Shown piece by piece: positions 177 to 12,740 of a stretch of 12,740 bases of DNA. Made by a program: the position numbers and the translations under genes. The stretch comes from JBBIVP01 sp037439705 [NCBI: bacterium] (GTDB lineage Bacteria; JBBIVP01). The stretch is taken from the NCBI GenBank assembly GCA_037439705.1, contig JBBIVP010000033.1, positions 1-12,740 on the forward strand. The letters run 5' to 3'. The notes beneath the pieces are model-generated. The model saw only the letters and a program-made list of their open reading frames with translations. It was not told the DNA's origin and did no database searches. How positions within the stretch are numbered: the stretch's first letter is position 1; each line of letters opens with the position of its first letter.

Positions 177-218
177 ATGGATTTTGGGAGGAAGAAAAAT
201 CAAGGAGAGAAAAGATGA
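177..218 (+). CDS. Predicted 13-residue leader peptide overlapping the operon's first gene
   Basis: The ATG at 177 opens a frame of 13 codons reading MDFGRKKNQGEKR, ending in TGA at 216-218. The stop overlaps the start of the QmoC-like gene as ATGA (215-218), the same overlap used at two other junctions in this operon. The peptide is basic and hydrophilic and resembles no known family. A run of regulatory codons, as in amino-acid attenuators, is not present. If translated, it would couple ribosome delivery to the first structural gene. It may be only a chance ORF in a purine-rich leader, so the call rests on the strong ribosome site and the exact overlap. Confidence 0.35.
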   Translation: MDFGRKKNQGEKR

Positions 219-1378
219 AGAAGGGAAGAGTTTATCCAGGATTTGTCTATGAGGTAAAAAAGTATGGAAGATTTGATTTCACAGGTTGTTACAACTGCGG
301 AACCTGTCCTCAAGTATGCGCTCTCTCTTCAGATAGTGCCCCTTTTCCAAGAAGACCAATTCAGTTTGCGCTCCTCGGATTGAGGGATGAGATGTTAAAG
401 AGCCTTGAACCGTGGCTATGTCATGATTGTGGGGATTGTTCAAAGTGGTGTCCAAGGGAGAATGAGCCACAGCATTCAATGGCAACCCTTAGAAGGTTTC
501 TCCTTGCTCAATATGACTGGACAGGAATTGCAAAGTGGATAATGAGGTCAAAGGTTTTACATTTCAGTCTATTATTTTTGACAGCAATTCTATTTCTCCT
601 TCTCGTATGGGTTTATCATACCTTCATTGACCCGGATGTTAGAGGAACCATATCAACAAAGGAATTTTTATCTACCCCTATGGATTTATCCCATATGTTT
701 TCAAGCCCATATCCTATTATGCTATATTTTACCCTCTTTGTTATCCTTTTCCCGATTTTTATTTTAGGAGTAAATCTGTTCAGGATGTGGAGGTGGACGA
801 TGGCAGATTTGAGGATTCCATTTTCAATATATCTAAGGGAATTCATAACTTATATAAGGCACTCTGTAACCCATGAGAATATAAGAAAGTGTGAGGAAAC
901 AAAAGAGAGGTGGCTCCCACACTGGCTTATGGCTTTGGGATGTGTGATGATGCTTTTTATTCTGGTATTTGCATTAAAATGGTTTCAGACAGATAAGGTT
1001 CATCCTGTTTATCATCCCCAGAGATGGCTTGGATATATTGCAACAATTTTTATGCTCTATGGCTCAGGTGATGCGCTTTTGAGCAGGATAAGAAAAAAAT
1101 CGGTTGTTCATAAGTATTCTGAATTCAGCGATATCACATTTCCGCTTCTTCTCTTCCTTGTTGCTTTGAGTGGAATTGTCCTTCACATATTTAGAATTTT
1201 AGGGCTTTCACTTGCAACCCATTATGCTTACGCAGTTCACATAGCAATAACCATTCCAATGCTTCTTGTTGAACTTCCATTTGGAAAGTGGTCTCACATG
1301 ATTTACAGACCAATGGCAATCTATTTTCAGAAAGTTAAAGAAAGTGTGATGGAAAAACAGATTAGGGAGGTAGCATGA
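215..1378 (+). CDS. QmoC-like membrane subunit: HdrC ferredoxin domain plus cytochrome b-type membrane domain
   Basis: 387 residues. The N-terminal third is an HdrC-type ferredoxin with two CxxCxxCxxxC motifs, C25/28/31/35 and C69/72/75/79, predicted to hold two [4Fe-4S] clusters. From residue 114 there are about six hydrophobic membrane segments (near 114-136, 165-189, 235-256, 271-289, 308-330, 338-356). Several histidines lie in or near them (H116, H236, H324, H342) and could bind heme b, as in NarI/HdrE/QmoC-type membrane subunits. The architecture and length match QmoC, which connects the HdrA-like proteins QmoA/B to menaquinone in sulfate reducers. Here no QmoA, QmoB or AprAB accompanies it. 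Instead it heads a hydrogenase operon, so the likely job is to link the soluble complex to the quinone pool. The start at 215 has AAGGAG at 202-207; the stop overlaps the next start (ATGA). Confidence 0.85.
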   Translation: MKKGRVYPGFVYEVKKYGRFDFTGCYNCGTCPQVCALSSDSAPFPRRPIQFALLGLRDEMLKSLEPWLCHDCGDCSKWCPRENEPQHSMATLRRFLLAQYDWTGIAKWIMRSKVLHFSLLFLTAILFLLLVWVYHTFIDPDVRGTISTKEFLSTPMDLSHMFSSPYPIMLYFTLFVILFPIFILGVNLFRMWRWTMADLRIPFSIYLREFITYIRHSVTHENIRKCEETKERWLPHWLMALGCVMMLFILVFALKWFQTDKVHPVYHPQRWLGYIATIFMLYGSGDALLSRIRKKSVVHKYSEFSDITFPLLLFLVALSGIVLHIFRILGLSLATHYAYAVHIAITIPMLLVELPFGKWSHMIYRPMAIYFQKVKESVMEKQIREVA

Positions 1379-2250
1379 GCAAAACAAAAATAGGAGCAGC
1401 AATGGTAGTGGGAGGAGGGGTTGGAGGAATTCAGGCAGCCCTTGACCTCGCTGAGGCTGGAATAAAGGTCTATCTTGTAGAAGATAAACCATCCATAGGT
1501 GGTGTAATGTCACAACTGGATAAGACATTTCCGACGAATGACTGCGCTATGTGCACATTGGCACCGAGGCTTGTCGGTGTTGGAAGGCATAAGGACATAG
1601 AGATAATCTCCCTTTCGGAGATAGAAAAAATTGAGGGAGAGCCCGGAAATTTCAGGGTAACTTTGAAGAGAAAGCCGAGATATGTTGATGAGGAGAAATG
1701 CACTGGTTGTGGAACATGCGTTTCAAACTGTCCTACAAGAAACAGGGTTCAACCGCTTGAGCCCTCACCCATTGAGATTGAGCATGAGTTTAGAGATAAG
1801 GTTGTGGAAATCGTTCAGAGGAATAAAGGAAGGGATGGACCGCTTATGCCAATTCTTCAGGAGATAAATGCTACATTCAACTACCTTCCTGAAAGTGCAT
1901 TAAGATATGTAGCCAAAGAAACTGGTTATCCTCTTTCTCATATTTTAAGAATTGCCACATTCTACAGTGCATTCAGCATTACGCCGAGGGGAAAATATGT
2001 AATAAATGTGTGCATAGGCACAACATGTTATGTGAGAGGTGCTGATAAACTTATGGAGAGATTTAGGGATGAGTTGAAAATAAAAGAAGGGGAAACAACA
2101 CCTGACAGGCTCTTCACATTGAGAGGAGTAAGGTGCATAGGTTGCTGTGGACTTGCCCCTGCTCTTATGGTGAATGAAGAGGTTCACGGAAAGGTCACAA
2201 TTCCTCATGTAAGAGAGATTATAAACAAATATAAAAAGGAGGCGGCATAA
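1375..2250 (+). CDS. Chimera: N-terminal half of HdrA fused to a NuoE/HydC [2Fe-2S] domain
   Basis: 291 residues. Residues 8-120 match the start of an HdrA flavin domain: the GGGVGG dinucleotide loop at 13-18, an acidic strand end (E36), the HdrA-specific CxxC region (C57, C60), then a ferredoxin motif C109/112/115/119. Where HdrA should continue with a second cluster motif and the rest of its flavin fold, the protein changes to a NuoE/HydC domain (about 131-290). This has thioredoxin-fold [2Fe-2S] ligands C213, C218, C254 and C258 and the helical N-terminal part typical of NuoE. NuoE/HydC works with NuoF/HydB in NAD(P)H oxidation, and that partner is encoded two genes downstream. The missing remainder of HdrA appears in the 4510-7710 gene. 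GGGAGGT precedes the ATG; the gene overlaps its upstream neighbour by 4 nt. Function in a shared complex is inferred. Confidence 0.85.
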   Translation: MSKTKIGAAMVVGGGVGGIQAALDLAEAGIKVYLVEDKPSIGGVMSQLDKTFPTNDCAMCTLAPRLVGVGRHKDIEIISLSEIEKIEGEPGNFRVTLKRKPRYVDEEKCTGCGTCVSNCPTRNRVQPLEPSPIEIEHEFRDKVVEIVQRNKGRDGPLMPILQEINATFNYLPESALRYVAKETGYPLSHILRIATFYSAFSITPRGKYVINVCIGTTCYVRGADKLMERFRDELKIKEGETTPDRLFTLRGVRCIGCCGLAPALMVNEEVHGKVTIPHVREIINKYKKEAA

Positions 2251-2633
2251 TGCCGAAGCTCACAATTGATGAATTGAGAAGGAAAAGGGAGGATGCTAAG
2301 AAGGGGTTATATTTAAGGGAGGGAGAATTCAAGGGAAAGGTGATAGTTCATATGGGAACCTGCGGAATAGCTGCTGGAGCGAGAAATATCCTATCAGCAT
2401 TCCTTGAGGAATTGGAAAAGAGTGGAAGAAAGGACATAATGATAACAACAAGTGGATGTGCAGGGTTGTGTTCAAGGGAGCCTATGGCTACAGTGGAAAT
2501 CCTTGACAAACCGCCTGTCAAGTATGTTGACCTCACTCCTGACAAAGTCAGAAAAATTTTCAGGGAGCACCTTTTGGAAGGCAAAATAGTTGTTGAATAC
2601 GCCCTTGGAATAGGTTCTGAAAGGGGAGGATAG
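2250..2633 (+). CDS. HndB-like thioredoxin-fold [2Fe-2S] ferredoxin
   Basis: 127 residues. The core (about 29-115) is a thioredoxin-like ferredoxin domain as in HndB of NADP-reducing hydrogenases and the N-terminus of HydB. Visible cysteines are C38 in MGTCGIAAGA and C70/C74 in GCAGLC. The second cysteine of the usual CxxxxC pair is Ala, a feature I recall as common in HndB proteins, so whether it binds a normal [2Fe-2S] cluster is uncertain. A charged N-terminal extension (1-25) looks helical and could dock to the flavoprotein encoded next. Start and previous stop share one base (TAATG), with AGGAGG upstream, so translation is coupled. The role is probably electron relay or structural support beside the FMN subunit, as in HndABCD-type enzymes. 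Confidence 0.85.
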   Translation: MPKLTIDELRRKREDAKKGLYLREGEFKGKVIVHMGTCGIAAGARNILSAFLEELEKSGRKDIMITTSGCAGLCSREPMATVEILDKPPVKYVDLTPDKVRKIFREHLLEGKIVVEYALGIGSERGG

Positions 2634-2635
2634 AT

Positions 2636-4513
2636 ATGGCTGTAAGAAGGATAGAACTTATGTTATGCACAGGAACAGGCTGTGTCGCAGGTGGGGCATA
2701 CAAGATAAAGGATGCCCTTGAGAAGGAACTGAAAAAGCACGGGCTTGATAAGGAAATATCAATTGTTATTACAGGATGTAATGGCTTCTGCGGACAGGGT
2801 CCGCTTATGGTTGTTGAGCCCGATAAAATTTTTTATGGTTGGTTGAAGCCCGAAGACATACCACATCTCGTTGAGGAGCATTTTCTAAAGGGAAGACCTG
2901 TTAAAAAACTGATGTTCGTTCCACCTGAAAAGAAGGAACCCGTTCCATTAGTTTCAGATATTTCATTCTTTAAGAAACAGTACCTTATTGTCTTAAAGAA
3001 CAAGGGAATGATAGACCCAGAGAAGATAGAGGAATACATTGCAAGGGATGGATATGCAGCCCTTGAGAAGGTTTTGACATATATGGACCCCGAATCTGTC
3101 ATTGAGGAAATAAAGAAATCTGGATTAAGGGGAAGGGGAGGTGCAGGATTTCCAACTGGAATCAAATGGGAAGTGTGCAGGAAACAACCAAAAACCCCCA
3201 AGTTCATAGTAGGCAACTGCGACGAGGGAGACCCAGGTGCTTATATGGACAGAAGCGTTTTTGAATCAGACCCCCATTCTGTTATTGAGGGAATGATAAT
3301 TGGAGGATATGCAATAGGTGCAAATAAGGGATATATATATGTGAGGACTGAATACCCACTGGCAATTCAGAGGATGAAGCTCGCAATTCAACAGGCAAGG
3401 GATTATGGGCTCCTTGGAGAAAACATTCTCGGTTCAGGATTCAGTTTCGACCTTGAGATAAGAGAGGGTTCTGGCGCATTCGTCTGCGGTGAAGAGACAT
3501 CACTTATTCATTCCATAGAAGGAAAATCTCCTGAACCACGACAGAGACCACCTTTTCCTGCACAGGAAGGAGTATGGGGATGTCCAACGGTTATAAACAA
3601 TGTTGAGACATGGGCTAATGTTCCAGTAATCATTCTCAGGGGTGCAGAATGGTTTTCAAGCATAGGAACGAAAACGAGCAAGGGGACGAAGATATTCTCT
3701 CTCGTCGGAAAGATAAACAATACAGGTCTCATTGAGGTTCCAATGGGGATAACCCTTAGAGAGATAATTTATGAGATAGGAGGAGGGATTCCGAAGAATA
3801 AGAAGTTCAAGGCAGTTCAAACAGGTGGTCCATCAGGTGGATGCATACCAGCATCACTTATAGACCTTCCAATTGACTATGAGAGCTTAACAGAAGCGGG
3901 CTCAATGATGGGTTCAGGAGGAATGATTGTGATGGATGAGGAAACCTGTATGGTTGATGTGGCGAAGTTCTTCATACAGTTTACAAACGATGAATCCTGT
4001 GGAAAGTGCTCTACCTGCAGGGAAGGAAGCGAGGCCATGCTTGAGGTTCTAACCAGGATTACAGAAGGAGAAGGAAGGGAAGGGGATATTGAGTTCCTTG
4101 AGGAACTCGGTCAGGTTGTAAAAGATGCCTCAATGTGTGGACTCGGTAAGACCCTTCCAAACCCTGTTCTTTCTACAATAAGGTATTTCAGGGATGAGTA
4201 TGAGGCTCACATTAAGTATAAAAGATGCCCTGCACTGGTCTGCAAGAATCTGATCAAATATTACATCCTTCCAGAAAAGTGTATAGGATGTACTGTTTGT
4301 ATGAAGGAATGCCCTGTAAATGCTATAAAGGGACAGACGAAATACATTCATATTATAGACCAGTTGCTGTGCACAAAATGTGGAACCTGCATAGAAGTTT
4401 GTCCTCCAAAGGTATCAGCAATCATTAAGGTCACAGGAAAGGAAGCAGAAGAATTACAAACCATTCCGGAACCCATTCCAGTAGTAGAATTTAAAAAGAG
4501 GAGTAAAAAATGA
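2636..4513 (+). CDS. HydB/HndC-type NuoF flavoprotein, NAD(P)H- and FMN-binding bifurcating subunit
   Basis: 625 residues. Domains in order: thioredoxin-like [2Fe-2S] ferredoxin (C11, C16, C48, C52); NuoF core with the FMN/NAD(H) glycine-rich loop GRGGAGFPTGIKWE at 166-179, the acidic NCDEGDPGAYMDR segment at 194-206 and GSGAFVCGEET at 278-288; the N3-type [4Fe-4S] site C455/458/461 with C501; then a C-terminal ferredoxin with two [4Fe-4S] motifs (C549/552/555/559 and C579/582/585/589). The RCPALVC pair (C531, C536) with H525 lies where HydB enzymes carry a zinc-type site. This full order, with ferredoxins at both ends, is that of HydB/HndC in electron-bifurcating hydrogenases rather than complex I NuoF. 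It should exchange electrons with NAD(H) or NADP(H). A two-nt gap follows the previous gene, and GGGGAGGA precedes the ATG. Confidence 0.92.
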   Translation: MAVRRIELMLCTGTGCVAGGAYKIKDALEKELKKHGLDKEISIVITGCNGFCGQGPLMVVEPDKIFYGWLKPEDIPHLVEEHFLKGRPVKKLMFVPPEKKEPVPLVSDISFFKKQYLIVLKNKGMIDPEKIEEYIARDGYAALEKVLTYMDPESVIEEIKKSGLRGRGGAGFPTGIKWEVCRKQPKTPKFIVGNCDEGDPGAYMDRSVFESDPHSVIEGMIIGGYAIGANKGYIYVRTEYPLAIQRMKLAIQQARDYGLLGENILGSGFSFDLEIREGSGAFVCGEETSLIHSIEGKSPEPRQRPPFPAQEGVWGCPTVINNVETWANVPVIILRGAEWFSSIGTKTSKGTKIFSLVGKINNTGLIEVPMGITLREIIYEIGGGIPKNKKFKAVQTGGPSGGCIPASLIDLPIDYESLTEAGSMMGSGGMIVMDEETCMVDVAKFFIQFTNDESCGKCSTCREGSEAMLEVLTRITEGEGREGDIEFLEELGQVVKDASMCGLGKTLPNPVLSTIRYFRDEYEAHIKYKRCPALVCKNLIKYYILPEKCIGCTVCMKECPVNAIKGQTKYIHIIDQLLCTKCGTCIEVCPPKVSAIIKVTGKEAEELQTIPEPIPVVEFKKRSKK

Positions 4514-7500
4514 AAAGCGTTGAGGTAATTATAAATGAAAAGAAGGTTGAGGAGGGGACAAAGCTCATAAATGCAATTGAAAAGGCTGGATTCTCTGTTC
4601 CTATTCTTTGCTATCACAAAGTCCTCTCTCCTTACGGTGCGTGCAGGTTGTGCCTTGTTGAAGTAAAGACCCCCGGAAGGGCTCCTGCCCTTCAGGCTTC
4701 ATGCTCCTATCCCGTTCATGAGGGGATTGAGGTTTTGACAGATACAGAGAGGGTTAAAAAGGCAAGAATAATGGTTGCAGAGCTTCTCCTTGCAAGGTGT
4801 CCTGATTCAGACCTCATAAAAACCATTGCATATGCACACGGTGTTAAGGAGCCGAGGATAAGGAAAAAGAACGATGACTGCATCTATTGTGGCCTGTGCG
4901 TGAGAATGTGTGAAGAGAGGATGGGAAGAAGCGCAATAGGATTTACTGGAAGGGGTCCAAGAAAGAAGCTTGAGCCCCCATTTGGAAAGCACAATGAGAT
5001 GTGCTGGACCTGCGGTGCTTGCAATTTTATATGTCCTGTTGGAAAGAAGGTTACAGTTCTAACTACAAAAAGACCATTCATTCCAATTCCAAATACCTTC
5101 AATATGGGTCTTGACTCAAGACCATCCATTTTCATCCTTTATCCACAGGCAGTTCCAAATAAGGCAATGATAGACAAAAATACATGTATCCATCTTAATT
5201 ATGAAGCCTGTGGAATATGTAAAGAGGTGTGCCCTGCTGGTGCAATAAATTATGAGGATAAGGAAAAGAAAATAGAATTAAATGTTGGAGCAATAATTGT
5301 TGCTCCAGGATATGAACCATTTGATGCAAAATTGAAAGAGGAATATGGATACGGAAAATATCCAAATGTGGTTTCTGCGCTTGAGTTTGAGAGAATCCTT
5401 TCAGCATCAGGTCCATATTCTGGAAATGTTTTAAGACCCTCTGATAAGAAGCATCCAAAAAGAATCGCATTCATCCAGTGCGTTGGGTCAAGGGATAATG
5501 AGAGGGATTATTGCTCAGCAGTTTGCTGTATGTATGCAACGAAGGAGGCGGTGTATGTGAGGGCATACAGCAAGTTATTTGAAGCGTATTATGAAACAGC
5601 AAAAAAACAGGGGGTTAGATACATAAGGTGTAGACCAGCAAAAATTGAGGAGGTCCCTGAAACCAGGAACTTGATAGTCCATTACCTTGAAGAAGGGGAT
5701 AAAAAGGCTTCTCATGAATATGATATGGTTGTTCTTTCTGTTGGAATGCTTCCTCCAAAGAGTGCGAAAGAACTGGCAAAAAGACTTGGAATTGAACTTA
5801 ACGAGTTCAACTTCTGCAGAACCTCTGTCTTTTCTCCAGTAGAAACTGTAAGAGAAGGGATATATGTGGCAGGACCATTCACTGAACCAAAGGATATTCC
5901 TGAAACCGTGATGCAGGCATCCGCATCCGCATCAAGGGTTCTCTCACTTCTTTCCGATGTAAAGGGAAGCCTTATAAAGGTAAAAGAATATCCACCTGAG
6001 ATTGATGTAACTGGTCAGGAACCAAGAATAGGGGTATTTGTCTGCCACTGCGGAACAAACATAGCGGGTGTTGTAAATGTGCCTCAGGTTGTTGAGTATG
6101 CAAAGACATTACCGAATGTCATATGGGCTGAAAACTTCCTTTATACCTGCTCAGCAGATGCATGCGAAAAGATAAAGGAAAGGATAAAGGAGTACAATCT
6201 TAACAGGGTTATTGTAGCATCCTGCACGCCGAGAACCCACGAGGTATTGTTTAGAAGCGTAATAAGGGAAGCAGGGTTAAATGAGTATCTCTTTGAGATG
6301 GCAAACATAAGAGACCAGTGTTCATGGGTGCACATGGAGGAGAAGGAAAAATCCACAAAGAAAGCAAAGGACCTTGTGAGAATGGCAGTTGCAAAGGCAG
6401 TGCTCCTTGAACCCCTTCAGAAAGGGAAACTTCCAATAACAAAGGGGGCACTTGTTATAGGAGGTGGACTTGCTGGAATGACATCTGCATTAGAACTTGC
6501 TGAACAGGGATACAATGTCTACCTCGTTGAAAAGGAGAAGGAACTTGGAGGGAATCTGAGAAATATAAGGTATCTTTTCAATGGAGAAGACCCGCAGAGG
6601 GAACTAAGAGGAATAATTGATAAGGTTAAAGGAAATCAAAAAATCCATCTCTTCCTTGAATCAAAGGTTGAAAGCGTTGAGGGTTCTGTTGGAAACTTTA
6701 AAACAAGTATAAAAACGAAGGATGGAATAAAAGAGGTTGAGCACGGGGTTGTTATAATAGCAGTTGGAGCGAAGGAATATAAACCAAAGGAGTACCTCTA
6801 CGGAGAAGACAGAAGGGTTATCACTCAGAGGGAGCTTGAGGAGAAGATTTCAAGTGAGGGAATCTCCTCTCCAAAGACATTTGTTATGATTCAGTGTGTA
6901 GGTTCAAGGGATGAAGAAAGACCTTATTGCTCAAGGATATGCTGTAATGAGGCAGTGAAGAATGCCTTGAAGATAAAGGAAATTTCCCCTGAATCAAATG
7001 TCTACCTTCTTTACAGGGACATAAGGACATACGGTTTTAAGGAAAGTTATTACACTAAGGCGAGAAAAGAGGGCGTTGTTTTCATAAGATACAGGGAGGA
7101 CAGAAAGCCTCAGGTTTCAAAAGATGGAGATAAACTTATAGTTAGCGTTTATGATTCCATCCTTGGAATGGAGGTTGAAATCCCAACAGATTTTCTTGTT
7201 CTTTCAGCAGGGGTTGTTCCTTATGAAGACAACAAAGAGGTTGCGCAGCTCTTTAAGGTTCCACTCACTCAGGACAAATTCTTCCTTGAGGCGCACATAA
7301 AATTGAGACCCGTTGATTTTGCAACAGAGGGGGTGTTTCTCGCAGGGCTTGCCCATTCCCCAAAACTTATTGAGGAAAGTGTGATTCAGGCTCAGGCATC
7401 AGCAGCAAGGGCGAGCACAATCCTTTCCCATGACCACCTTGAACTTGAGGCAAACATTTCTCACATAATTGATGAAAACTGTGATGGATGTGCATACTGT

Positions 7501-7710
7501 GTTGACCCATGTCCATTTAAAGCAATCACACTTCTTGAATATATGTGGCAGGGCTCAATAAAGAAGGTTGTCGAGGTTAACGAAAGCCTATGCAAGGGTT
7601 GTGGATGCTGTATGGCTACCTGTCCAAAGAGGGGAGCAATGGTTAAAGGTTTCACCCTTGACCAGATAAGCGCACAGATTAATGCAGCTCTTGAATCAAT
7701 GGAGGTGTGA
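4510..7710 (+). CDS. NuoG-head/HdrA/HdrA chimera, predicted multi-flavin electron hub
   Basis: 1066 residues in three parts. (1) 1-180 is a NuoG/HydA-type head: [2Fe-2S] ligands C34/45/48/65 and two [4Fe-4S] motifs (C124/127/130/134, C165/168/171/175). The usual His-Cys cluster is missing; that stretch (95-110) keeps only C97. (2) About 200-490 is the rear half of an HdrA: cluster motif C226/234/237/241, flavin-fold segments around 258-272 and 450-475, and IQCVGSRD with YCSAVCC. It has no GxGxxG loop of its own. (3) About 503-1066 is a second HdrA with the cysteine-rich N-domain (VCHCG, C512/514; also C547, C572), a GGGLAG flavin loop at 651-656, a repeat of IQCVGSRD/YCSRICC at 794-812, and a C-terminal two-cluster ferredoxin (C991/994/997/1001; C1028/1031/1034/1038). 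MvhD follows directly, so the last unit probably takes hydrogenase electrons. ATGA overlap with the previous gene; AGAGGAG upstream. Confidence 0.9.
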   Translation: MKSVEVIINEKKVEEGTKLINAIEKAGFSVPILCYHKVLSPYGACRLCLVEVKTPGRAPALQASCSYPVHEGIEVLTDTERVKKARIMVAELLLARCPDSDLIKTIAYAHGVKEPRIRKKNDDCIYCGLCVRMCEERMGRSAIGFTGRGPRKKLEPPFGKHNEMCWTCGACNFICPVGKKVTVLTTKRPFIPIPNTFNMGLDSRPSIFILYPQAVPNKAMIDKNTCIHLNYEACGICKEVCPAGAINYEDKEKKIELNVGAIIVAPGYEPFDAKLKEEYGYGKYPNVVSALEFERILSASGPYSGNVLRPSDKKHPKRIAFIQCVGSRDNERDYCSAVCCMYATKEAVYVRAYSKLFEAYYETAKKQGVRYIRCRPAKIEEVPETRNLIVHYLEEGDKKASHEYDMVVLSVGMLPPKSAKELAKRLGIELNEFNFCRTSVFSPVETVREGIYVAGPFTEPKDIPETVMQASASASRVLSLLSDVKGSLIKVKEYPPEIDVTGQEPRIGVFVCHCGTNIAGVVNVPQVVEYAKTLPNVIWAENFLYTCSADACEKIKERIKEYNLNRVIVASCTPRTHEVLFRSVIREAGLNEYLFEMANIRDQCSWVHMEEKEKSTKKAKDLVRMAVAKAVLLEPLQKGKLPITKGALVIGGGLAGMTSALELAEQGYNVYLVEKEKELGGNLRNIRYLFNGEDPQRELRGIIDKVKGNQKIHLFLESKVESVEGSVGNFKTSIKTKDGIKEVEHGVVIIAVGAKEYKPKEYLYGEDRRVITQRELEEKISSEGISSPKTFVMIQCVGSRDEERPYCSRICCNEAVKNALKIKEISPESNVYLLYRDIRTYGFKESYYTKARKEGVVFIRYREDRKPQVSKDGDKLIVSVYDSILGMEVEIPTDFLVLSAGVVPYEDNKEVAQLFKVPLTQDKFFLEAHIKLRPVDFATEGVFLAGLAHSPKLIEESVIQAQASAARASTILSHDHLELEANISHIIDENCDGCAYCVDPCPFKAITLLEYMWQGSIKKVVEVNESLCKGCGCCMATCPKRGAMVKGFTLDQISAQINAALESMEV

Positions 7711-7711
7711 A

Positions 7712-8137
7712 ATGGGAGAACAGGAAAAAAAGTTTGAGCCTTTTATCATCGCCTTCTGCTGTAACTGGTGCTCCTATGCAGGAGCGGATTTAGCAGGAGT
7801 ATCAAGGCTTCAGTACCCGCCAAATGTTAGAATTATAAGGGTTATGTGTTCTGGTATGGTTCATCCAAATCTCGTCATAGATGCTTTGACAAAGGGCGCG
7901 GATGGCGTCATAATGTGTGGCTGTCATCCAGGTGATTGTCATTATCGGGAAGGAAATCTCAAGGCTCAGAAAAGGGCAGAGGGAATCCACCTTATGCTTG
8001 ATGACCTCGGAATTGAAAGGGAAAGGTTCAGGCTTGAATGGGTTTCTGCCTCTGAGGGAATTAAATTCGCCCAGGTAATTAGTGAGTTTACTGAACAGAT
8101 AAGAAAACTCGGACCAAATCCTATGAAAGGAGGGTAG
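7712..8137 (+). CDS. mvhD: MvhD-family [2Fe-2S] iron-sulfur subunit linking hydrogenase to HdrA
   Basis: 141 residues from the ATG at 7712, chosen because GGAGGT (7701-7706) lies five nt upstream and the preceding gene stops at 7710; an upstream in-frame ATG (7682) would overlap that gene by 29 nt. Conserved MvhD/VhuD cysteines are visible: FCCNWC (C16, C17, C20), VMCSG (C46) and CGCHPGDCHY (C69, C71, C76). In methanogen Mvh-Hdr complexes MvhD carries one [2Fe-2S] cluster and passes electrons from the hydrogenase to the HdrA flavin. Its place here, between an HdrA-containing chimera and hydrogenase genes, agrees with that job. In several bacteria MvhD is fused to HdrA, but here it is separate. 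Confidence 0.93.
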   Translation: MGEQEKKFEPFIIAFCCNWCSYAGADLAGVSRLQYPPNVRIIRVMCSGMVHPNLVIDALTKGADGVIMCGCHPGDCHYREGNLKAQKRAEGIHLMLDDLGIERERFRLEWVSASEGIKFAQVISEFTEQIRKLGPNPMKGG

Positions 8138-8139
8138 AG

Positions 8140-8340
8140 ATGAGGGTGAAAATAGTTGAGAGAAAAAAATTTATGTGGGATGGTAATGAATATAAGACTG
8201 AAGAAGAGGCAAAGGATGCAATGCTCAAGTATAAATCTGATGGATTTGAGGTCCTAATGGAGAAAGGAGGTGATAAATACTACCTTTATACAAGAAGGGT
8301 TGCAGCGCAGGTGGTGGTTGAAGGAACTCCACCTGTTTAA
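8140..8340 (+). CDS. Small cysteine-free protein of unknown function inside the hydrogenase operon
   Basis: 66 residues, with a strong AAAGGAGGG (8126-8134) before the ATG and a two-nt gap to MvhD, so it is probably a real gene. I do not recognise the family. It has no cysteine, membrane segment or signal peptide. The sequence suggests a small strand-helix-strand-strand unit: a basic, strand-like start, an acidic helix around 20-30 (KTEEEAKDAMLKYK), then two strand-like stretches with a tyrosine-rich KYYLYTRR. It is the only protein of the nine-gene operon without visible cofactor ligands. A structural, assembly or interface role for the MvhD-hydrogenase contact is a guess from position alone. 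Its tail, rich in Val and ending in TPPV, looks flexible. Confidence 0.75.
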   Translation: MRVKIVERKKFMWDGNEYKTEEEAKDAMLKYKSDGFEVLMEKGGDKYYLYTRRVAAQVVVEGTPPV

Positions 8341-8344
8341 AAAT

Positions 8345-8355
8345 AAAGGAGGTGA
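8345..8355 (+). promoter_or_regulatory. Near-perfect Shine-Dalgarno of the hydrogenase small subunit
   Basis: AAAGGAGGTGA, almost the full complement of the 16S rRNA 3' end, ends three nt before the ATG at 8359. A matching site, AAAAGGAGGTGA, lies at 9282-9293 before the large subunit. Both hydrogenase subunits thus carry the strongest ribosome sites of the operon. Confidence 0.75.
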
Positions 8356-8358
8356 ATC

Positions 8359-9282
8359 ATGGCTGTAAGAGTAGCAGAAGAGTGGTTCGCCATATGTGGG
8401 GGTTGTGAGGTCACAATCCTTGACATAGGCGAAAAGCTTCTTGACCTTCTGCCAAACCTTCAATTCGTCCATATCCCAGTTTTAATGGACCACAAGGTTT
8501 TCGGGCAGAAGGGAGAGAAGAAAAAGATGGAGATTCCACAGGCAGATGTTGGAATCATCGCGGGCTCAATAAGGAATGAGGAGAACAGGGAACTGGCGAA
8601 GGAGATGAGGGCAAAGTGCAAAACCCTTATTGCTCTTGGCTCCTGTGCCTGCTACGGAGGAATTCCCGCACTCGCAAACCTCTTCAAGTTAGATGACCTA
8701 TTGAAAAAGGTTTACAAGGAATCAAAGTCAACAGACCCAGCAGAGCCTCCCAAAGATAATATTCCATCTCTCGCCGACAGGGTGTATGCACTTGATGAGA
8801 TTGTGAAGGTGGATGTCTATATCCCTGGATGCCCAACATCCCCAGACCTCGTAGTTGATGCCCTGACAGCCCTTCTTCAGGGAAAGCCATTTACCCTTCC
8901 AGAAAGGAGCGTATGCGATGACTGCCCAACACAGAGACAGAAGAAGGCGGACATCCAGCTGAAGAGACCCCTTGAGTCTGTGACAGACATAAGTAAGCCA
9001 GTGAATAAATCAAGGTGTTTTATGGAACTCGGTTATCTTTGCTTAGGACCAGTGACAAAATCAGGATGTGGAGGTCATGAAAAGGTTCCAAGATGCATAA
9101 AGGGCTACATGCCATGCAGGGGCTGTTTCGGTCCAATCAGAAAGGGCGCAAATCCACTCGTTGAGATGATGGGAGCACTCTCAAGCATAGGGCTTGATGC
9201 AAAGGTAATTGCTGACAGGGCACCCACAATTCAGAGGTACATAGGCGGGCACGGAAGGCTGAAACCAACGCCTGCAAGATAA
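8359..9282 (+). CDS. mvhG: [NiFe] hydrogenase small subunit, MvhG-like (group 3)
   Basis: 307 residues without a Tat signal peptide, so cytoplasmic, as in group 3 enzymes. The proximal [4Fe-4S] cluster ligands are visible as CGGC (C13, C16), GSCACYGG (C96) and PGCPTSP (C158). A C-terminal region carries eight more cysteines for two further clusters: C186, C189, C220, C228, C237, C246, C253 and C256. It transfers electrons from the NiFe site of the large subunit encoded next towards MvhD. Length and cysteine pattern agree with MvhG/Vhu-type small subunits. The 18-nt gap before it and 15-nt gap after it keep it in the operon. Confidence 0.93.
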   Translation: MAVRVAEEWFAICGGCEVTILDIGEKLLDLLPNLQFVHIPVLMDHKVFGQKGEKKKMEIPQADVGIIAGSIRNEENRELAKEMRAKCKTLIALGSCACYGGIPALANLFKLDDLLKKVYKESKSTDPAEPPKDNIPSLADRVYALDEIVKVDVYIPGCPTSPDLVVDALTALLQGKPFTLPERSVCDDCPTQRQKKADIQLKRPLESVTDISKPVNKSRCFMELGYLCLGPVTKSGCGGHEKVPRCIKGYMPCRGCFGPIRKGANPLVEMMGALSSIGLDAKVIADRAPTIQRYIGGHGRLKPTPAR

Positions 9283-9297
9283 AAAGGAGGTGAAAAA

Positions 9298-10743
9298 ATG
9301 GGAGAAAGAATAGTAATACAACCAGTATCAAGGATTGAAGGGCATGCAAAGATAACAATTCAACTTGATGATGTAGGAAATGTGGAGAACACATGGGTGA
9401 ATGTGATTGAACTAAGGGGATTTGAGAAGTTCTGTATAGGAAGACCTGTTGAGGAACTTCCGAGGATTATGACAAGCATATGCGGAGTCTGCCCATGGTC
9501 CCTCCACCTTGCCAGTGCAAAAGCAAATGATGCTGTATTCGGCGTTAAAATCCCACCCGCAGCAAAGAAACTGAGAGAACTATGCAATTCAATCGCCTAT
9601 ACAGAGGAACACATCCTTCACTTCTATTTCCTCGCAGGAGCGGACTTTGTAATGGGTCCGGATGCAGATTATTCAGTCAGGAATGTAATTGGAATAGCCC
9701 AGAAGCTTCCAGATGTTGCTAAGAGGGTTGTGAGGTGCAGGTGGCTCGGAGCAGAGATGCTTCAAATAGTTTCTGGAAAATCAATCCATCCTGTTACAGC
9801 GGTTCCTGGTGGGTTCAGCAAGCCTTTGACAAAAGAAGAGGTTGAAAAATTAAAACCTATGGCTCAGGAGGTTCTTGACCTTGCAAAGTTTACAATTGAT
9901 TATGCAAAGAAGAACATCTTTCCACAGTATCTTGATGCAGTAAAGACGCTCGGCGTAATAAAGACAGGCTTTCTCGGAACTGTAAGAGAGGATGGAACAT
10001 GGGATGTTTATGATGGAAAACTGAGGATGATGAACCCTGACGGAACCTACCTTGACTTCAAATATGAGGAATACACCGATTACATAGCAGAGCACATTGA
10101 ACCATGGTCATATCTGAAATTCCCCTATATGAAGAAGGCTGGAAAAATTGTTATGGACATTGACAATCCCGTTGGGGTTTACAGAACCAATACCCTTGCG
10201 AGGATAAATGTTTGTGATAAGATGCCAACCCCACTTGCTCAGGCTGAGCTTGAGGAGTTCAGGAAGAACTTCGGAAGACCAGCACAATTGACCCTCCTTT
10301 ATCATTGGGCAAGGCTGATTGAACTTCTTGCAAATGCAGAATATGTGGTTCAACTTCTTAATGACCCTGAAATAACGAGCACAGATATAAGGGTTCCTGT
10401 TAAACCCAGAGCTGCAAGGGGAGTTGGATGCGTTGAGGCACCAAGGGGAACACTCATTCACGATTATGAGACAGACGAAAATGGAATTGTTACAAATGTC
10501 AACCTCATAGTTGGAACAACACATAACAATGCTGCAATCAATATGTCCGTTAAGAAATCTGCGAAGGAGCTCATAAAGAATGGTAAGTATGATGAGGGAA
10601 TACTAAACAAACTTGAAATGGCAATAAGGGCTTATGACCCATGCCTTTCCTGCGCCACCCACAAGCTTGATGGTTCTATACCAGTTAAAGTAACAGTCAT
10701 AGGACCTGATTACCAGATCATAGATACCCTTAAGAACTTCTGA
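9298..10743 (+). CDS. mvhA: [NiFe] hydrogenase large (catalytic) subunit, MvhA-like, with altered L1 motif
   Basis: 481 residues. It starts with the group 3 signature SRIEGHAKI (11-19). The N-terminal NiFe ligands are C62 and C65 in SICGVCPWSLH; the C-terminal ligands are C449 and C452 in DPCLSCATH (447-455). The 26 residues after H455 match the tail normally removed by an endopeptidase, and such a protease is encoded just downstream. The L1 motif is unusual: family members mostly read RICGVCPxxHH, whereas here Arg is Ser60 and the first His is Leu69, leaving only H70. The catalytic cysteines are intact, so H2 activation is still likely, but proton or second-sphere properties could differ. 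It belongs with the small subunit upstream and is the last gene before the terminator. Confidence 0.93.
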   Translation: MGERIVIQPVSRIEGHAKITIQLDDVGNVENTWVNVIELRGFEKFCIGRPVEELPRIMTSICGVCPWSLHLASAKANDAVFGVKIPPAAKKLRELCNSIAYTEEHILHFYFLAGADFVMGPDADYSVRNVIGIAQKLPDVAKRVVRCRWLGAEMLQIVSGKSIHPVTAVPGGFSKPLTKEEVEKLKPMAQEVLDLAKFTIDYAKKNIFPQYLDAVKTLGVIKTGFLGTVREDGTWDVYDGKLRMMNPDGTYLDFKYEEYTDYIAEHIEPWSYLKFPYMKKAGKIVMDIDNPVGVYRTNTLARINVCDKMPTPLAQAELEEFRKNFGRPAQLTLLYHWARLIELLANAEYVVQLLNDPEITSTDIRVPVKPRAARGVGCVEAPRGTLIHDYETDENGIVTNVNLIVGTTHNNAAINMSVKKSAKELIKNGKYDEGILNKLEMAIRAYDPCLSCATHKLDGSIPVKVTVIGPDYQIIDTLKNF

Positions 10744-10747
10744 TTTT

Positions 10748-10774
10748 AGGGGGGTTAACCCCCCTTTTCTTTTT
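10748..10774 (+). terminator. Rho-independent terminator of the hydrogenase operon
   Basis: The perfect palindrome AGGGGGGTTAACCCCCCT (10748-10765) forms a seven-bp, nearly all G-C stem with a TTAA loop. The T-rich tract TTTTCTTTTT continues to 10774. It begins five nt after the large-subunit stop and ends exactly at the next ATG. It may be partial, letting some transcription into the protease gene, for which no separate promoter is evident. Confidence 0.85.
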
Positions 10775-11248
10775 ATGAAGCCAAAAAGGATAATCGTTTT
10801 AGGGTGTGGGAATGTGTTGTTTGGAGATGATGGATTTGGTCCAGAGGTTGTAAAATTTCTTAACGAAAATTTTAAAATTCCTGATGATGTTGAGGCTATT
10901 GATGCTGGAACGAGTGTTAGAAACATACTTTTTGACCTGGTTTTAAATCCGTCAAGGCCCGAGAAGGTTATTATAGTGGACGCAGTTGACATTGGAAGAA
11001 CTCCGGGTGAGGTTTTTGAAATTGACATTTCATCAATTCCACCTATAAAAATTGATGACTTTTCAATGCACCAATTGCCAACATCAAGTCTCTTAAGGGA
11101 ATTGAAGGATATATGCGGCGTTGATGTGAGAATAATATGCGTTCAGGTTCAGCATATTCCAGAAGAGGTGAAGCCTGGACTTTCAGATGTAGTAAAAAAG
11201 GCAATTCCCGTTGCCTGCGAAAGGATTTTAAAAGAAATTATTGATTAA
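10775..11248 (+). CDS. [NiFe] hydrogenase maturation endopeptidase (HycI/HybD/FrhD family)
   Basis: 157 residues, the usual length. The family signature appears as GCGNVLFGDDGFGPEV (10-25). The three nickel-sensing ligands of HybD have likely counterparts in D19, an Asp of VDAVD (D69 or D72) and H99 in SMHQLP. The enzyme removes the C-terminal tail of the large subunit after NiFe insertion, and a suitable tail of 26 residues is present on the large subunit just upstream. The start lies directly on the T-tract of the terminator and no Shine-Dalgarno is visible. The first strand (KRIIVLG) begins at residue 4, so a later start is unlikely. Expression probably depends on terminator read-through or an unrecognised promoter. 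Confidence 0.92.
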   Translation: MKPKRIIVLGCGNVLFGDDGFGPEVVKFLNENFKIPDDVEAIDAGTSVRNILFDLVLNPSRPEKVIIVDAVDIGRTPGEVFEIDISSIPPIKIDDFSMHQLPTSSLLRELKDICGVDVRIICVQVQHIPEEVKPGLSDVVKKAIPVACERILKEIID

Positions 11249-11292: not shown

Positions 11293-12318
11293 ATGAAGCC
11301 TAATATATGCGTGATAGGGGCTGGATACTGGGGAAAAAACATTGTTAGGACTATTTACGAAATGGAATGCCTCTACGGAGTTTGCGAGATAGATATTAAA
11401 AAGATTGAAAAATTAAAAAATGAATATGAGTTCAAAGCATTTACCAACTTGAAGGATGCACTCAGAGACGAGAATATAGAAGGATATGCCATTGCTGTTC
11501 CTCCCTCTTCCCTTCCAAAAGTTGCTCTTGAGGTTTTGAAAAGAGAAAGGCATGCCTTTGTTGAAAAACCGCTTTCCCTTTCCTTAAAGGGAATAGAAAG
11601 GATGATGGAACTTTCAGAGAAACACGGAGTAGTTCTCATGGGGGGCTACATTCTTCTTTATAACGATGCCCTGTCGTTCATAAAAAACTGGTTCAAATCC
11701 GAAAAACCCAGAACCTACTACATCTATTCCCAGAGACTTAACCTCGGAATAATAAGAAATGATGTGAATGTCTGGTGGAGTCTTGCTCCTCACGATGTTT
11801 CAATAATGAATTATCTGTTTGATGAAAAACCAGATTTCATCAGGGCATGGGGTTCTTCCTTCATAAGAAATGGTATAGAGGATGTTGTTCTGGGAGAGAT
11901 TTCCTATTCGGACGGGATGAGGGTATACATTCATGTAAGCTGGATTGATCCGTGCAAGGTGAGAAGAACGGTATTCATTACGGACAAAGGAATGATAGAA
12001 TTTGATGATACAAGGGCTGATGATAAGGTAAGGATTCATAAAAAAACCGTTGAAAAAAAGGAGGTTGAAAAGGGGCTTGGAGATTTTTCCTCTTTTGCTG
12101 AATTTCAGGTGATTCTCCGTTCAGGAGATACATTTATTCCAGCAATAAGGGTCAGGGAACCTTTGAAGGTTGAATTAGAGCATTTTGTTGATTGCATAAT
12201 CAAAAAGAAAAAGCCGCTCACAGATGGTTTATTTTCGTATCAGGTTTTAAAAGTCATCTCCGCCGGGGAAAGGGCTTTAAAATCCGAAAAAGGGGTGAGG
12301 ATAAATTGGGAGAGATAA
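11293..12318 (+). CDS. Gfo/Idh/MocA-family NAD(P)-dependent oxidoreductase, WlbA-like sugar dehydrogenase
   Basis: 341 residues. The N-terminal Rossmann fold shows GAGYWGKN (9-16). The family Lys lies in EKPLSL (K92), the GGYILLY segment follows at 117-123, and a second catalytic-type motif, APHDVS (H167, D168), is in the C-terminal domain. Such enzymes oxidise or reduce sugar carbons. Pairing with a beta-helix acyltransferase that starts inside its 3' end suggests nucleotide-sugar 3-oxidation and N-acetylation as in WlbA/WlbB (WbpB/WbpD) pathways for polysaccharide sugars. The aminotransferase of that pathway is not in view. No signal peptide, so cytoplasmic. It has its own promoter and appears unrelated to the hydrogenase operon. 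Substrate is not determined by the sequence. Confidence 0.85.
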   Translation: MKPNICVIGAGYWGKNIVRTIYEMECLYGVCEIDIKKIEKLKNEYEFKAFTNLKDALRDENIEGYAIAVPPSSLPKVALEVLKRERHAFVEKPLSLSLKGIERMMELSEKHGVVLMGGYILLYNDALSFIKNWFKSEKPRTYYIYSQRLNLGIIRNDVNVWWSLAPHDVSIMNYLFDEKPDFIRAWGSSFIRNGIEDVVLGEISYSDGMRVYIHVSWIDPCKVRRTVFITDKGMIEFDDTRADDKVRIHKKTVEKKEVEKGLGDFSSFAEFQVILRSGDTFIPAIRVREPLKVELEHFVDCIIKKKKPLTDGLFSYQVLKVISAGERALKSEKGVRINWER

Positions 12319-12740
12319 AGATATATCCAGGAGTAAAACTCGGGAAAGACTTAAGAATTGAAGAATGGGTTGAGATAGGGGTTCCTCCGAGGGATAAAGG
12401 TAATGAAATTCTTGAAACGGTTATAGGAGATAATGCATTTATAAGGTCAAAGAGCATTATATACGCGGGAACAAGGATTGGAAAAAATTTCTTCGCCGGG
12501 CATACAGTCATGATAAGGGAGAGGTGTATAATTGGAGATGATGTAAGTATTGGAACAGGGAGCGTTATTGAAAGGGATGTAAAGATAGGGAATGGCGTGA
12601 GAATTCATTCACAGGTTTTTATACCTGAATTTACGGAGATTGAAGATAGAGCATGGATTGGTCCAAGGGTTGTTATAACCAACTGCCTCCATCCATTGTG
12701 TCCTCAGAGCAAAAGATGCCTCAAAGGACCGTTAATAAAA
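12306..12740 (+). CDS. Left-handed beta-helix acyltransferase (WlbB-like), 3' end beyond window
   Basis: The frame is open from a TTG at 12306 to the window edge, 145 codons so far. TTG is chosen because GGGGTGAGG (12292-12300) lies five nt upstream, there is no earlier ATG in frame, and the next ATG (12511) would cut away the first helix coils. The start overlaps the oxidoreductase stop by 13 nt, so the two are translationally coupled. The protein shows hexapeptide-type repeats, for example around IGDNAF, IGDDVS and IGNGVR, typical of trimeric acetyl-CoA-dependent transferases. The segment near the end of the window (NCLHP...KGPLI) matches the loop region of WlbB/WbpD-type N-acetyltransferases. 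The substrate is probably an aminated sugar nucleotide made by the partner enzyme; this is inference from context. Confidence 0.82.
   Translation, partial: MGEIKIYPGVKLGKDLRIEEWVEIGVPPRDKGNEILETVIGDNAFIRSKSIIYAGTRIGKNFFAGHTVMIRERCIIGDDVSIGTGSVIERDVKIGNGVRIHSQVFIPEFTEIEDRAWIGPRVVITNCLHPLCPQSKRCLKGPLIK

What the first reader, a model, noticed from the sequence alone, without database searches (positions are those of the whole stretch)
1375..7710. One HdrA appears split in trans, its halves grafted onto NuoE and NuoG partners
The 1375-2250 gene carries only the front of an HdrA (GGGVGG flavin loop, CxxC region, first ferredoxin motif) and then becomes NuoE. The 4510-7710 gene has a NuoG head followed, from about residue 200, by what looks like exactly the remaining part of an HdrA (second cluster motif C226-C241, later flavin-fold segments, YCSAVCC), without any flavin loop of its own before residue 226. 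Both junctions fall at CxxCxxCxxxCP motifs, as if recombination occurred between similar ferredoxin repeats of HdrA and NuoG. The FAD site would then be built from two polypeptides, physically tying the NuoE and NuoG proteins together.
Basis: partly seen in the sequence, partly recalled or inferred. Interest (0 to 1): 0.9.

Follow-up and report, generated by a model that had tools for sequence, protein, structure and literature searches.

The report
Electron-splitting enzyme cut by inserted operon
A key energy-converting flavin protein (HdrA) is encoded as two half-proteins on either side of NADH-handling genes, one half carried by each of two NADH-module subunits, and the same cut recurs in many bacteria and some archaea, suggesting that the module is plugged straight into the flavin enzyme.

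Summary
The gene at 1375-2250 carries HdrA residues 145-258, then NuoE. Coverage is complementary apart from about 17 residues over one CxxCxxCxxxCP motif.

The cut recurs. The C-half is grafted to NuoG; the N-half is fused to NuoE or free-standing. Of 51 further genomes with the NuoG-HdrA junction, 48 hold the N-half, 1 a contig-edge fragment, and 2 none, on contigs that end. A second family cuts a canonical HdrA there: 5odc residues 3-263 on one protein, 246-652 on the other. Free halves are under purifying selection.

Best reading: a NuoE-F-G (Bfu) block sits inside hdrA and the halves rejoin in trans, sharing the FAD site, the inserted ferredoxin and one cluster ligand (Cys197) between chains. 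Close relatives carry a GltD domain, or nothing, in that loop. The trans complex is inferred; no heterodimer could be modelled. Ten searches of an open-access library found no description.

The parts
215..1378 (+). QmoC/HdrC-like membrane subunit (387 aa): HdrC-type ferredoxin part plus membrane helices
   Evidence: NCBIfam qmoC 8e-59, 199.9 bits, below its cut-off of 300
1375..2250 (+). Fusion protein P0001: HdrA N-half::NuoE (BfuC)
   Evidence: phmmer vs PDB; alignment A2 of 27 orthologues
1396..1743 (+). HdrA N-half (aa 8-123): GGGVGG flavin loop, CAMC, first CxxCxxCxxxCP of the inserted ferredoxin
   Evidence: matches 5odc_A 145-258; ends at intact-HdrA model position 123
1552..1554 (+). 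Codon of C60, equivalent to HdrA Cys197; TGA (Sec) in 10 of the 43 first-scan split loci
   Evidence: offset 137 in the equal-length one search match (8-121 to 145-258); TGA codons
1777..2238 (+). NuoE/BfuC domain (aa 135-288)
   Evidence: PF01257 2.5e-46; 8a6t_C
2250..2633 (+). Thioredoxin-like [2Fe-2S] ferredoxin
   Evidence: PF01257 3.2e-4, below cut-off; NF041612 5.1e-9, below cut-off
2636..4513 (+). NuoF/BfuB with N-terminal Trx-like [2Fe-2S] and C-terminal 2[4Fe-4S] domains
   Evidence: PF01512, PF10589, PF01257, Fer4
4510..7710 (+). Fusion protein P0002: NuoG (BfuA) head::HdrA C-half::second HdrA
   Evidence: alignments A1 and A3
4510..5043 (+). NuoG/BfuA head (aa 1-178): [2Fe-2S] plus two [4Fe-4S] motifs
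   Evidence: 9mqx_A 18-181, E 2.4e-37
5065..5979 (+). C-half of the split HdrA (aa ~186-490): second inserted-ferredoxin motif C226/C234/C237/C241, rest of flavin fold, E294 and K345 (E356/K409 equivalents)
   Evidence: 5odc_A 249-510; cysteines and E294 invariant in A1; K345 invariant in A3
6016..7701 (+). Second HdrA (aa ~503-1064): N-domain, own flavin fold, no inserted ferredoxin, C-terminal 2[4Fe-4S]
   Evidence: model aligns to 5odc_A over 553 residues, Z 36.7, rmsd 3.3
7712..8137 (+). MvhD (listed ORF opens at 7682; start at 7712 inferred from the P0002 stop)
   Evidence: PF02662 4.8e-57
8359..9282 (+). MvhG/VhuG-like [NiFe] hydrogenase small subunit
   Evidence: PF01058; VhuG 8e-65, below cut-off
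9298..10743 (+). MvhA/VhuA-like [NiFe] hydrogenase large subunit
   Evidence: PF00374; VhuA 6.3e-142, below cut-off
10775..11248 (+). HycI-type hydrogenase maturation protease
   Evidence: PF01750 1.6e-26

Best explanation
The hdrA gene is interrupted inside its inserted-ferredoxin domain, between the two cluster motifs, by a NuoE-Trx-NuoF-NuoG (Bfu/HydABC-type) block. The N-half is carried on the N-terminus of NuoE; the C-half follows the ferredoxin repeats of NuoG and continues into a second HdrA. The halves reassemble in trans when NuoE, NuoF and NuoG assemble (inferred). Shared between chains would be: the FAD site (GxGxxG from P0001, E294/K345 and the C-terminal FAD motif from P0002); both clusters of the inserted ferredoxin (C109/C112/C115/C119 from P0001, C226/C234/C237/C241 from P0002); and the fourth ligand of the N-domain cluster of the second HdrA (C60, the Cys197 equivalent, in P0001; the second HdrA lacks it). 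The inserted ferredoxin, through which HdrA normally feeds free ferredoxin, would be wired to NuoG's [4Fe-4S] clusters and so to the NADH/ferredoxin core. With MvhADG and the QmoC-like subunit the likely enzyme is a membrane-anchored complex that couples H2, NAD(H)/ferredoxin and quinone through HdrA flavins and the NuoF flavin. Shown: sequence complementarity, co-occurrence, conservation, purifying selection, related unsplit genes. Inferred: assembly, electron route, quinone, direction, and that the block entered hdrA rather than the reverse.
For: Complementary HdrA coverage in the window and in L173: a free 283-aa protein matches 5odc 3-263 and the NuoG fusion matches 5odc 246-652 or 8rvv 264-640, overlapping only at NuoG's motif. 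Co-occurrence: 38 of 43 genomes with the N-half hold the full-length NuoG-HdrA junction; the N-half contigs of the other 5 end early. Of 51 newly found junction genomes 48 hold the N-half, 1 a fragment, 2 none where contigs end. Reverse search: 9 of 9 hits among 297 genomes of one phylum and 7 of 10 among 124 of another are junction-positive; the other 3 lie on contigs of 6-10 kb. Free-standing N-halves without an N-domain end 8-14 residues after the last Cys in 14 loci. N-half dN 0.003-0.10 against dS 0.16-1.2 in 7 unsaturated pairs. Ligand cysteines and flavin residues invariant. Unsplit relatives with the same flanking genes.
Against: No physical evidence of assembly. The AlphaFold2 monomers are weak where the halves should meet (P0001 residues 1-130, ten-residue means 51-82; P0002 119-227 and 233-246 below 50), which fits missing partners but proves nothing. 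The listed rows of the fold comparison show NuoE, not HdrA, for P0001. The halves overlap by about 17 residues at one ferredoxin motif. On the N-half tree no starred set holds the window. The QmoC score is below the curated cut-off, so quinone coupling is weakly based.
Confidence: 0.75

Rival explanations
1. The halves do not rejoin. The N-half on NuoE is a docking or electron-transfer appendage, and the C-half on NuoG is a relic or scaffold, with only the second HdrA binding a working flavin.
For: The second HdrA in P0002 is complete enough to work alone. No heterodimer model exists.
Against: Flavin and cluster residues are invariant in both halves. Free N-halves exist with no other domain and are under strong purifying selection. 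In the 17 L173-type stretches the NuoG fusion has no second HdrA and no intact HdrA is seen in the stretch, so the two halves are the only HdrA of that operon.
Confidence: 0.12
2. The N-half complements another, intact HdrA of the cell (a swapped or heterodimeric HdrA) and not the NuoG-borne C-half.
For: 12 of 79 stretches with both halves also show an intact HdrA (L005, L007, L014, L015, L020, L028, L038, L154, L196, L198, L202, L203), many genomes hold further HdrAs, and HdrA pairs with a trans Cys197 are described (PMC9012536).
Against: In 67 of 79 stretches, the window included, no intact HdrA lies nearby, while the NuoG-borne half that lacks a flavin loop does. An intact HdrA needs no second flavin loop.
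Confidence: 0.06
3. Origin by recombination between similar CxxCxxCxxxCP ferredoxin repeats of HdrA and NuoG, and not by insertion of a block. This concerns origin only and is compatible with trans assembly.
For: NuoG's last motif aligns with HdrA motif 1, and the C-half starts just after it.
Against: A single crossover explains only the NuoG junction. It does not give an N-half, fused to NuoE or free, upstream on the same strand, as in 79 of 79 stretches with both halves (one locus counted twice).
Confidence: 0.3
4. Assembly or annotation artefact.
For: 42 of 43 first-scan titles say MAG; one match (L194/G1104) is a visible chimera with a run of unknown bases.
Against: The same pair occurs in dozens of unrelated genomes, one on a 4.8-Mb contig (L020), and in this window as clean overlapping open frames.
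Confidence: 0.01

Closest known systems
Type II (double) HdrA, including tandem and fused HdrAs of ANME archaea (PMC9012536, section 15 part 1 and passages; PMC12054007, passages and section 5)
   Same: Two HdrA units whose features complement each other: one has Cys197 but no N-domain, the other the N-domain but no Cys197. L045, L053 and L042 are unsplit relatives; L045 and L053 have the same flanking QmoC, MvhD, MvhG, MvhA and HycI genes.
   Different: There both units are unbroken, singly or in one chain. Here the first unit is cut and shared by two polypeptides, and the order of units is reversed relative to the ANME description.
Type III HdrA / HdrL, HdrA with a GltD/NfnB domain inserted in the inserted ferredoxin (PMC12054007, PMC9012536, PMC2702500; passages and the sections named above)
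   Same: An NAD(P)H module is placed in the same ferredoxin loop. L043, L049 and L051 share the window's operon (L041's contig ends), and L001 (split) is 91-98% identical to L043 in the second HdrA, 82-83% in the cut one.
   Different: GltD is inserted in cis, about 25 residues further on (after PQAVPN, read), and the chain stays whole. Here a multi-gene block separates the halves into two proteins.
Bfu (HydABC-type) bifurcating family (PMC9304861, abstract, section 5 whole and passages)
   Same: NuoE, NuoF with extra [2Fe-2S] and 2[4Fe-4S] domains, and a BfuA-like NuoG head; the third substrate reaches the core through BfuA. The PHP and ATPase genes between nuoF and nuoG in several loci resemble hydABC operons (recalled).
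   Different: No BfuA or BfuC carrying HdrA is described in section 5. Bam-Bfu is said there to contain an HdrA-type module, not described as split.
HdrABC-MvhADG of methanogens (5odc, 8rvu)
   Same: L173 encodes HdrC- and HdrB-like proteins, a complete HdrA in two pieces, and MvhDGA.
   Different: HdrA is cut near residue 263, and nuoEFG lies between the pieces. The window itself lacks HdrB.

Membership tests
HdrA | TrxR-like flavin domain with GxGxxG and the E356/K409 bifurcation residues | tested here: met
   Split over two chains: loop in P0001; E294 and K345 invariant in P0002 alignments. Residue roles from PMC12054007.
HdrA | Inserted ferredoxin with two cluster motifs | tested here: met
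   Motif 1 in P0001, motif 2 in P0002, all eight Cys invariant in 27 and 29 rows.
HdrA | One continuous polypeptide | tested here: not met
   Two genes 2.26 kb apart; 79 of 79 stretches with both halves keep them apart by 1.4-7.8 kb.
Type III HdrA | GltD-like domain inserted in the ferredoxin domain | tested here: not met
   No such domain in P0001 or before the C-half in P0002; present in L043.
Bfu family | BfuBC core: NuoF with extra [2Fe-2S] and 2[4Fe-4S] domains plus a NuoE [2Fe-2S] | tested here: met
   Pfam domains of P0005 and P0001.
Bfu family | BfuA head resembling characterised members | tested here: met
   9mqx_A, E 2.4e-37.
Bfu family | Measured NADH/ferredoxin bifurcation | not testable with these tools
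   Needs biochemistry.
Qmo complex | QmoC membrane subunit | tested here: inconclusive
   NF038018, 199.9 bits against a cut-off of 300.
Qmo complex | Association with AprAB | tested here: inconclusive
   No apr-like gene among the nine proteins scanned in this window; the rest of the genome is not held.
Group 3c [NiFe] hydrogenase (MvhADG) | MvhA, MvhG and MvhD in one operon | tested here: met
   VhuA and VhuG scores are below their curated cut-offs.
Intein-mediated split protein | Intein halves at the break | tested here: not met
   No intein family among Pfam matches of P0001 and P0002 at E <= 0.001.

The most novel reading that the evidence does not exclude
The inserted-ferredoxin loop of HdrA is an evolutionary socket. 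Into it nature has placed nothing (type II), a GltD domain in cis (type III), or a complete bifurcating NADH module that cuts the protein in two. The cut version is a chimeric enzyme in which the HdrA flavin site, two [4Fe-4S] clusters and one extra cluster ligand are each built from two chains, wiring flavin-based bifurcation in HdrA in series with the non-canonical NuoF (Bfu) site, so that H2, quinone or disulfide, NAD and ferredoxin are coupled in one machine.
Probability: 0.5. Interest if true: 0.9.

Novelty: new variant of a known kind. Interest (0 to 1): 0.8.

Why it matters
If the halves rejoin, this is a cofactor-binding fold kept split across two subunits in more than a dozen phyla, with electron-carrying clusters ligated across the chain boundary. 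It joins two of the known electron-bifurcation mechanisms in one complex. It also shows how such machines gain a new electron input: by placing a module inside the loop through which the old enzyme spoke to ferredoxin. Routine annotation is likely to miss it, since each half would be filed as NuoE, NuoG or truncated HdrA, and many free halves are further hidden by a TGA (selenocysteine) codon.

Tried and rejected
Monomers were folded instead. Structural comparison recovered NuoE for P0001 and the second HdrA for P0002; the half-HdrA parts were not among the listed rows and are therefore untested by fold.

Intein, frameshift or read-through joining of the halves: rejected for lack of intein matches and because at least 1.4 kb lies between them.

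'The N-half is missing in L161': rejected. It lies about 24 kb upstream on the same strand of the same contig (G198:C40), free, ending in a TGA before nuoE. 'N-half without C-half' in G010, G030, G031, G037, G043 and G115: all on contigs that end before the expected place.

A single clear origin of the split: not established. Starred branches force at least 5 changes for the double-HdrA split group on the C-half tree, 2 on the N-half tree and 2 on the concatenated tree of 20 loci. The trees are unrooted, so the direction (cut, or rejoined) is unknown; the two single-half trees are quick searches.

My pattern for the E356 residue matched only 58 of 93 C-halves because it was too strict; the alignment shows the residue invariant in 29 of 29. 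The K409 pattern matched 91 of 93; the other two are a contig-truncated row and the L194 chimera.

Rows dropped before counts: three of 93 N-half rows are not real halves (two TGA-truncated duplicates, one unrelated protein), leaving 90, all with CxxC/U and CxxCxxCxxxC and 89 with GxGxxG, L037 lacking its start. L206 repeats L012. One pair with saturated dS (L001/L003, N-half dN 0.15) and one that covers N-half plus NuoE (L013/L018, dN 0.13, dS 0.96) are left out of the N-half range.

In the reverse search 5 of 14 junction genomes of the second phylum gave no hit at 1e-75; four of them have a free N-half and the fifth, G035.

Papers: ten searches of an open-access library with no preprints and few subscription journals found no description of this split. 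Appel et al. 2021 on HdrA(BC) modules was seen only in reference lists. Passages or sections were read of PMC9012536, PMC12054007, PMC11237513, PMC2702500, PMC10553843, PMC9304861, PMC6305446, PMC7325909, PMC5165239, PMC12142623 and PMC7886697; PMC6085437 gave no match for the terms asked; the rest were seen as search listings.
Full report
WHAT IS IN THE WINDOW. Nine co-directional genes run from 215 to 11248: a QmoC/HdrC-like membrane protein, P0001 (1375-2250), a small thioredoxin-like ferredoxin, NuoF, P0002 (4510-7710), MvhD, MvhG, MvhA and a HycI-type protease. P0001 is HdrA residues 145-258 followed by a NuoE domain. P0002 is a NuoG head best matched by the BfuA-like chain 9mqx_A, then HdrA from about residue 249 to about 560, then a second HdrA with N-domain, own flavin fold and C-terminal ferredoxins but no inserted ferredoxin.

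COMPLEMENTARY, NOT OVERLAPPING. On a model of 24 intact HdrAs (440 positions) P0001 covers 3-123 and P0002 106-438. Of 91 N-half rows, 70 end at positions 121-124; of 92 C-half rows all start at 97-109. The overlap is one CxxCxxCxxxCP motif. In P0001 it is HdrA's own motif 1; in P0002 it is NuoG's last motif, since it aligns inside 9mqx_A. The break therefore falls in the loop between the two cluster motifs of the inserted ferredoxin.

A RECURRENT ARCHITECTURE. A scan of genome contigs with P0001, capped at 80 loci, gave 43 that hold an HdrA N-half beside NuoE, from more than a dozen phyla by record title. In 35 of these 43 the N-half and NuoE are one frame (two with a TGA codon, two cut by a contig end). 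In 8, all titled Desulfobacter- or Deltaproteobacteria, the N-half is a separate gene of about 130 codons that stops 8-14 residues after the last cysteine, followed by a separate nuoE. Ten of the 43 have TGA at the codon for Cys197; other loci with similar titles (L011, L023, L040) have cysteine. Selenocysteine in HdrA is known (PMC2702500, PMC12054007, passages read).

CO-OCCURRENCE, BOTH WAYS. The NuoG-HdrA junction profile (alignment A1) matches full length in 38 of the 43 genomes; in the other 5 the N-half contig ends before the expected position. Searching 1355 genomes of six phyla with the same profile at E <= 1e-80 found 62 carriers, 51 of them not in the first set. Fifty match the junction in full; G1104 is broken by unknown bases. 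Their surroundings, a whole-genome search of 13 of them and a reading of the remaining N-halves show the N-half in 48 of 51: 25 fused to NuoE (one at a contig edge), 6 free with a selenocysteine codon, 17 free with an N-domain. One more (G124) has a 60-residue fragment at a contig edge. Two (G116, G556) have none; their junction contigs end 0.2 and 3 kb upstream. In reverse, the NuoE-fusion profile A2 hits 9 of 297 genomes in one phylum, all junction-positive, and 10 of 124 in another, 7 junction-positive and 3 on contigs of 6-10 kb. In all 79 fetched stretches with both halves on one contig (one locus counted twice) the N-half lies upstream on the same strand, 1.4-7.8 kb before the C-half; in G198 it lies about 24 kb upstream.

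A SECOND FAMILY CUTS A CANONICAL HDRA. In L173 and 16 similar stretches the NuoG fusion carries no second HdrA, and no intact HdrA is seen in the stretch. In L173 a free protein of 283 aa matches 5odc residues 3-263, and the NuoG fusion of 585 aa matches 5odc 246-652 and 8rvv 264-640, the difference at the start being NuoG's own motif. HdrC- and HdrB-like genes and MvhDGA lie around, and the Bfu block with regulator-like genes lies between. In L170 and L171 the same N-half is fused to NuoE. Together the two pieces make one complete methanogen-type HdrA.

FUNCTIONAL CONSTRAINT. In 27 aligned N-halves the flavin-loop glycines, both CAMC cysteines and all four motif-1 cysteines are invariant. In 29 C-halves C226, C234, C237, C241 and E294 are invariant, and K345 in 24. 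Free N-halves show dN 0.003-0.09 against dS 0.16-1.1 (3 pairs), and fused ones 0.02-0.10 against 0.25-1.2 (4 pairs without saturation). These are genes under purifying selection, not relics.

SHARED ANCESTRY AND MODULE SWAP. On the C-half tree the window lies in a 13-row set (SH-aLRT 99) with L160, L163, L172 and L003 (split), L001 (split), L041/L043/L049/L051 (GltD type III) and L042/L045/L053 (intact type II). The N-half tree, with few columns, returns nearly the same rows but with no support for that set (0), inside an 18-row set with 91. On the concatenated tree the 13-locus set is supported 100/99, and L001 nests 100/100 with the type III loci L041 and L043. QmoC is seen in 12 of the 13, MvhD in 12 and MvhG in 11, with L172 and L041 cut by contig ends. 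L001 and L043 are 98% identical in the second HdrA's N-domain, 91% in its flavin domain, 97% in MvhD, 94% in MvhG, 87% in QmoC and 82-83% in the cut HdrA, yet one carries the NuoEFG block and the other a GltD domain. The GltD insert lies about 25 residues beyond the cut. So the same loop accepts different electron-input modules.

HOW IT PROBABLY WORKS. Chadwick et al. (PMC9012536, section 15) describe that the N-domain cluster of HdrA takes one ligand, Cys197, from the partner HdrA, and that the inserted ferredoxin carries electrons to free ferredoxin. In the window Cys197 is C60 of P0001 and the N-domain is in P0002, so that ligand too would cross chains. NuoE and NuoG both sit on NuoF in known complexes (general knowledge), which would bring the halves together. 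The inserted ferredoxin would then touch NuoG's [4Fe-4S] clusters, replacing free ferredoxin as partner and linking HdrA flavin chemistry to the NADH/ferredoxin core. With MvhADG and the QmoC-like subunit the window complex would couple H2, NAD/ferredoxin and quinone; in loci with HdrB and HdrC a disulfide would take the place of quinone. Direction and stoichiometry are open.

LIMITS. No heterodimer could be modelled. P0002 residues 119-227 and 233-246 and much of the HdrA part of P0001 are predicted with low confidence, as expected for half domains but without proof. The searches of papers covered open-access texts only.

Noticed in passing
L013, L018, L029, L030, L032, L034, L035, L039, L058, L060; also L063, L065, L066, L067, L069, L073, L075: TGA at the Cys197 codon (CAM-Sec) of the HdrA N-half in the first ten loci and of other HdrA matches in the last seven. 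Routine gene calling would break these genes.
   Followed up: yes
L001:13507-15920, and similar places in L005, L006, L012; L173:3458-7275: A regulator-like set (CBS plus HATPase, PHP domain, HATPase; L001 scanned) sits inside the Bfu block, as in hydABC operons (recalled); its role is unknown.
   Followed up: partly
L041, L043, L046, L048, L049, L051, L052, L054, L055, L056, L061, L064, L068, L072, L074, L076, L077, L078: Eighteen HdrAs of the first scan have an insert of over 300 residues between hdrN and hdrM (type III-like; only L043's insert was scanned for families), 17 under bacterial titles. PMC12054007 counted nine type III sequences in methane- and alkane-metabolizing archaea.
   Followed up: partly
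L005:1586-4636, L038:2005-5064, L028:18346-20816, L020:17126-20440: An intact double HdrA lies next to the split one in the same locus.
   Followed up: no
L012:19732-20052, L018:11840-12214: MvhD matches stop near a conserved cysteine; a further selenocysteine codon is suspected but the codon was not checked.
   Followed up: no
L169:1377-2249: A split N-half fused to NuoE with a TGA at the Cys197 codon also in the phylum of G021 (Planctomycetota by L021's title), so selenocysteine there is not limited to desulfobacteria.
   Followed up: no
L194:9992-12076 (G1104): The NuoG-HdrA frame runs into unknown bases and then an unrelated enzyme: an assembly chimera.
   Followed up: partly
L033:13846-17111: The C-half protein is divided into two frames within the second HdrA's N-domain; frameshift or true fission not decided.
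   Followed up: no
window 11293-12740: Downstream of the operon lie a Gfo/Idh-type oxidoreductase and a hexapeptide-type acetyltransferase (by eye, no family search), looking like sugar-nucleotide genes.
   Followed up: no
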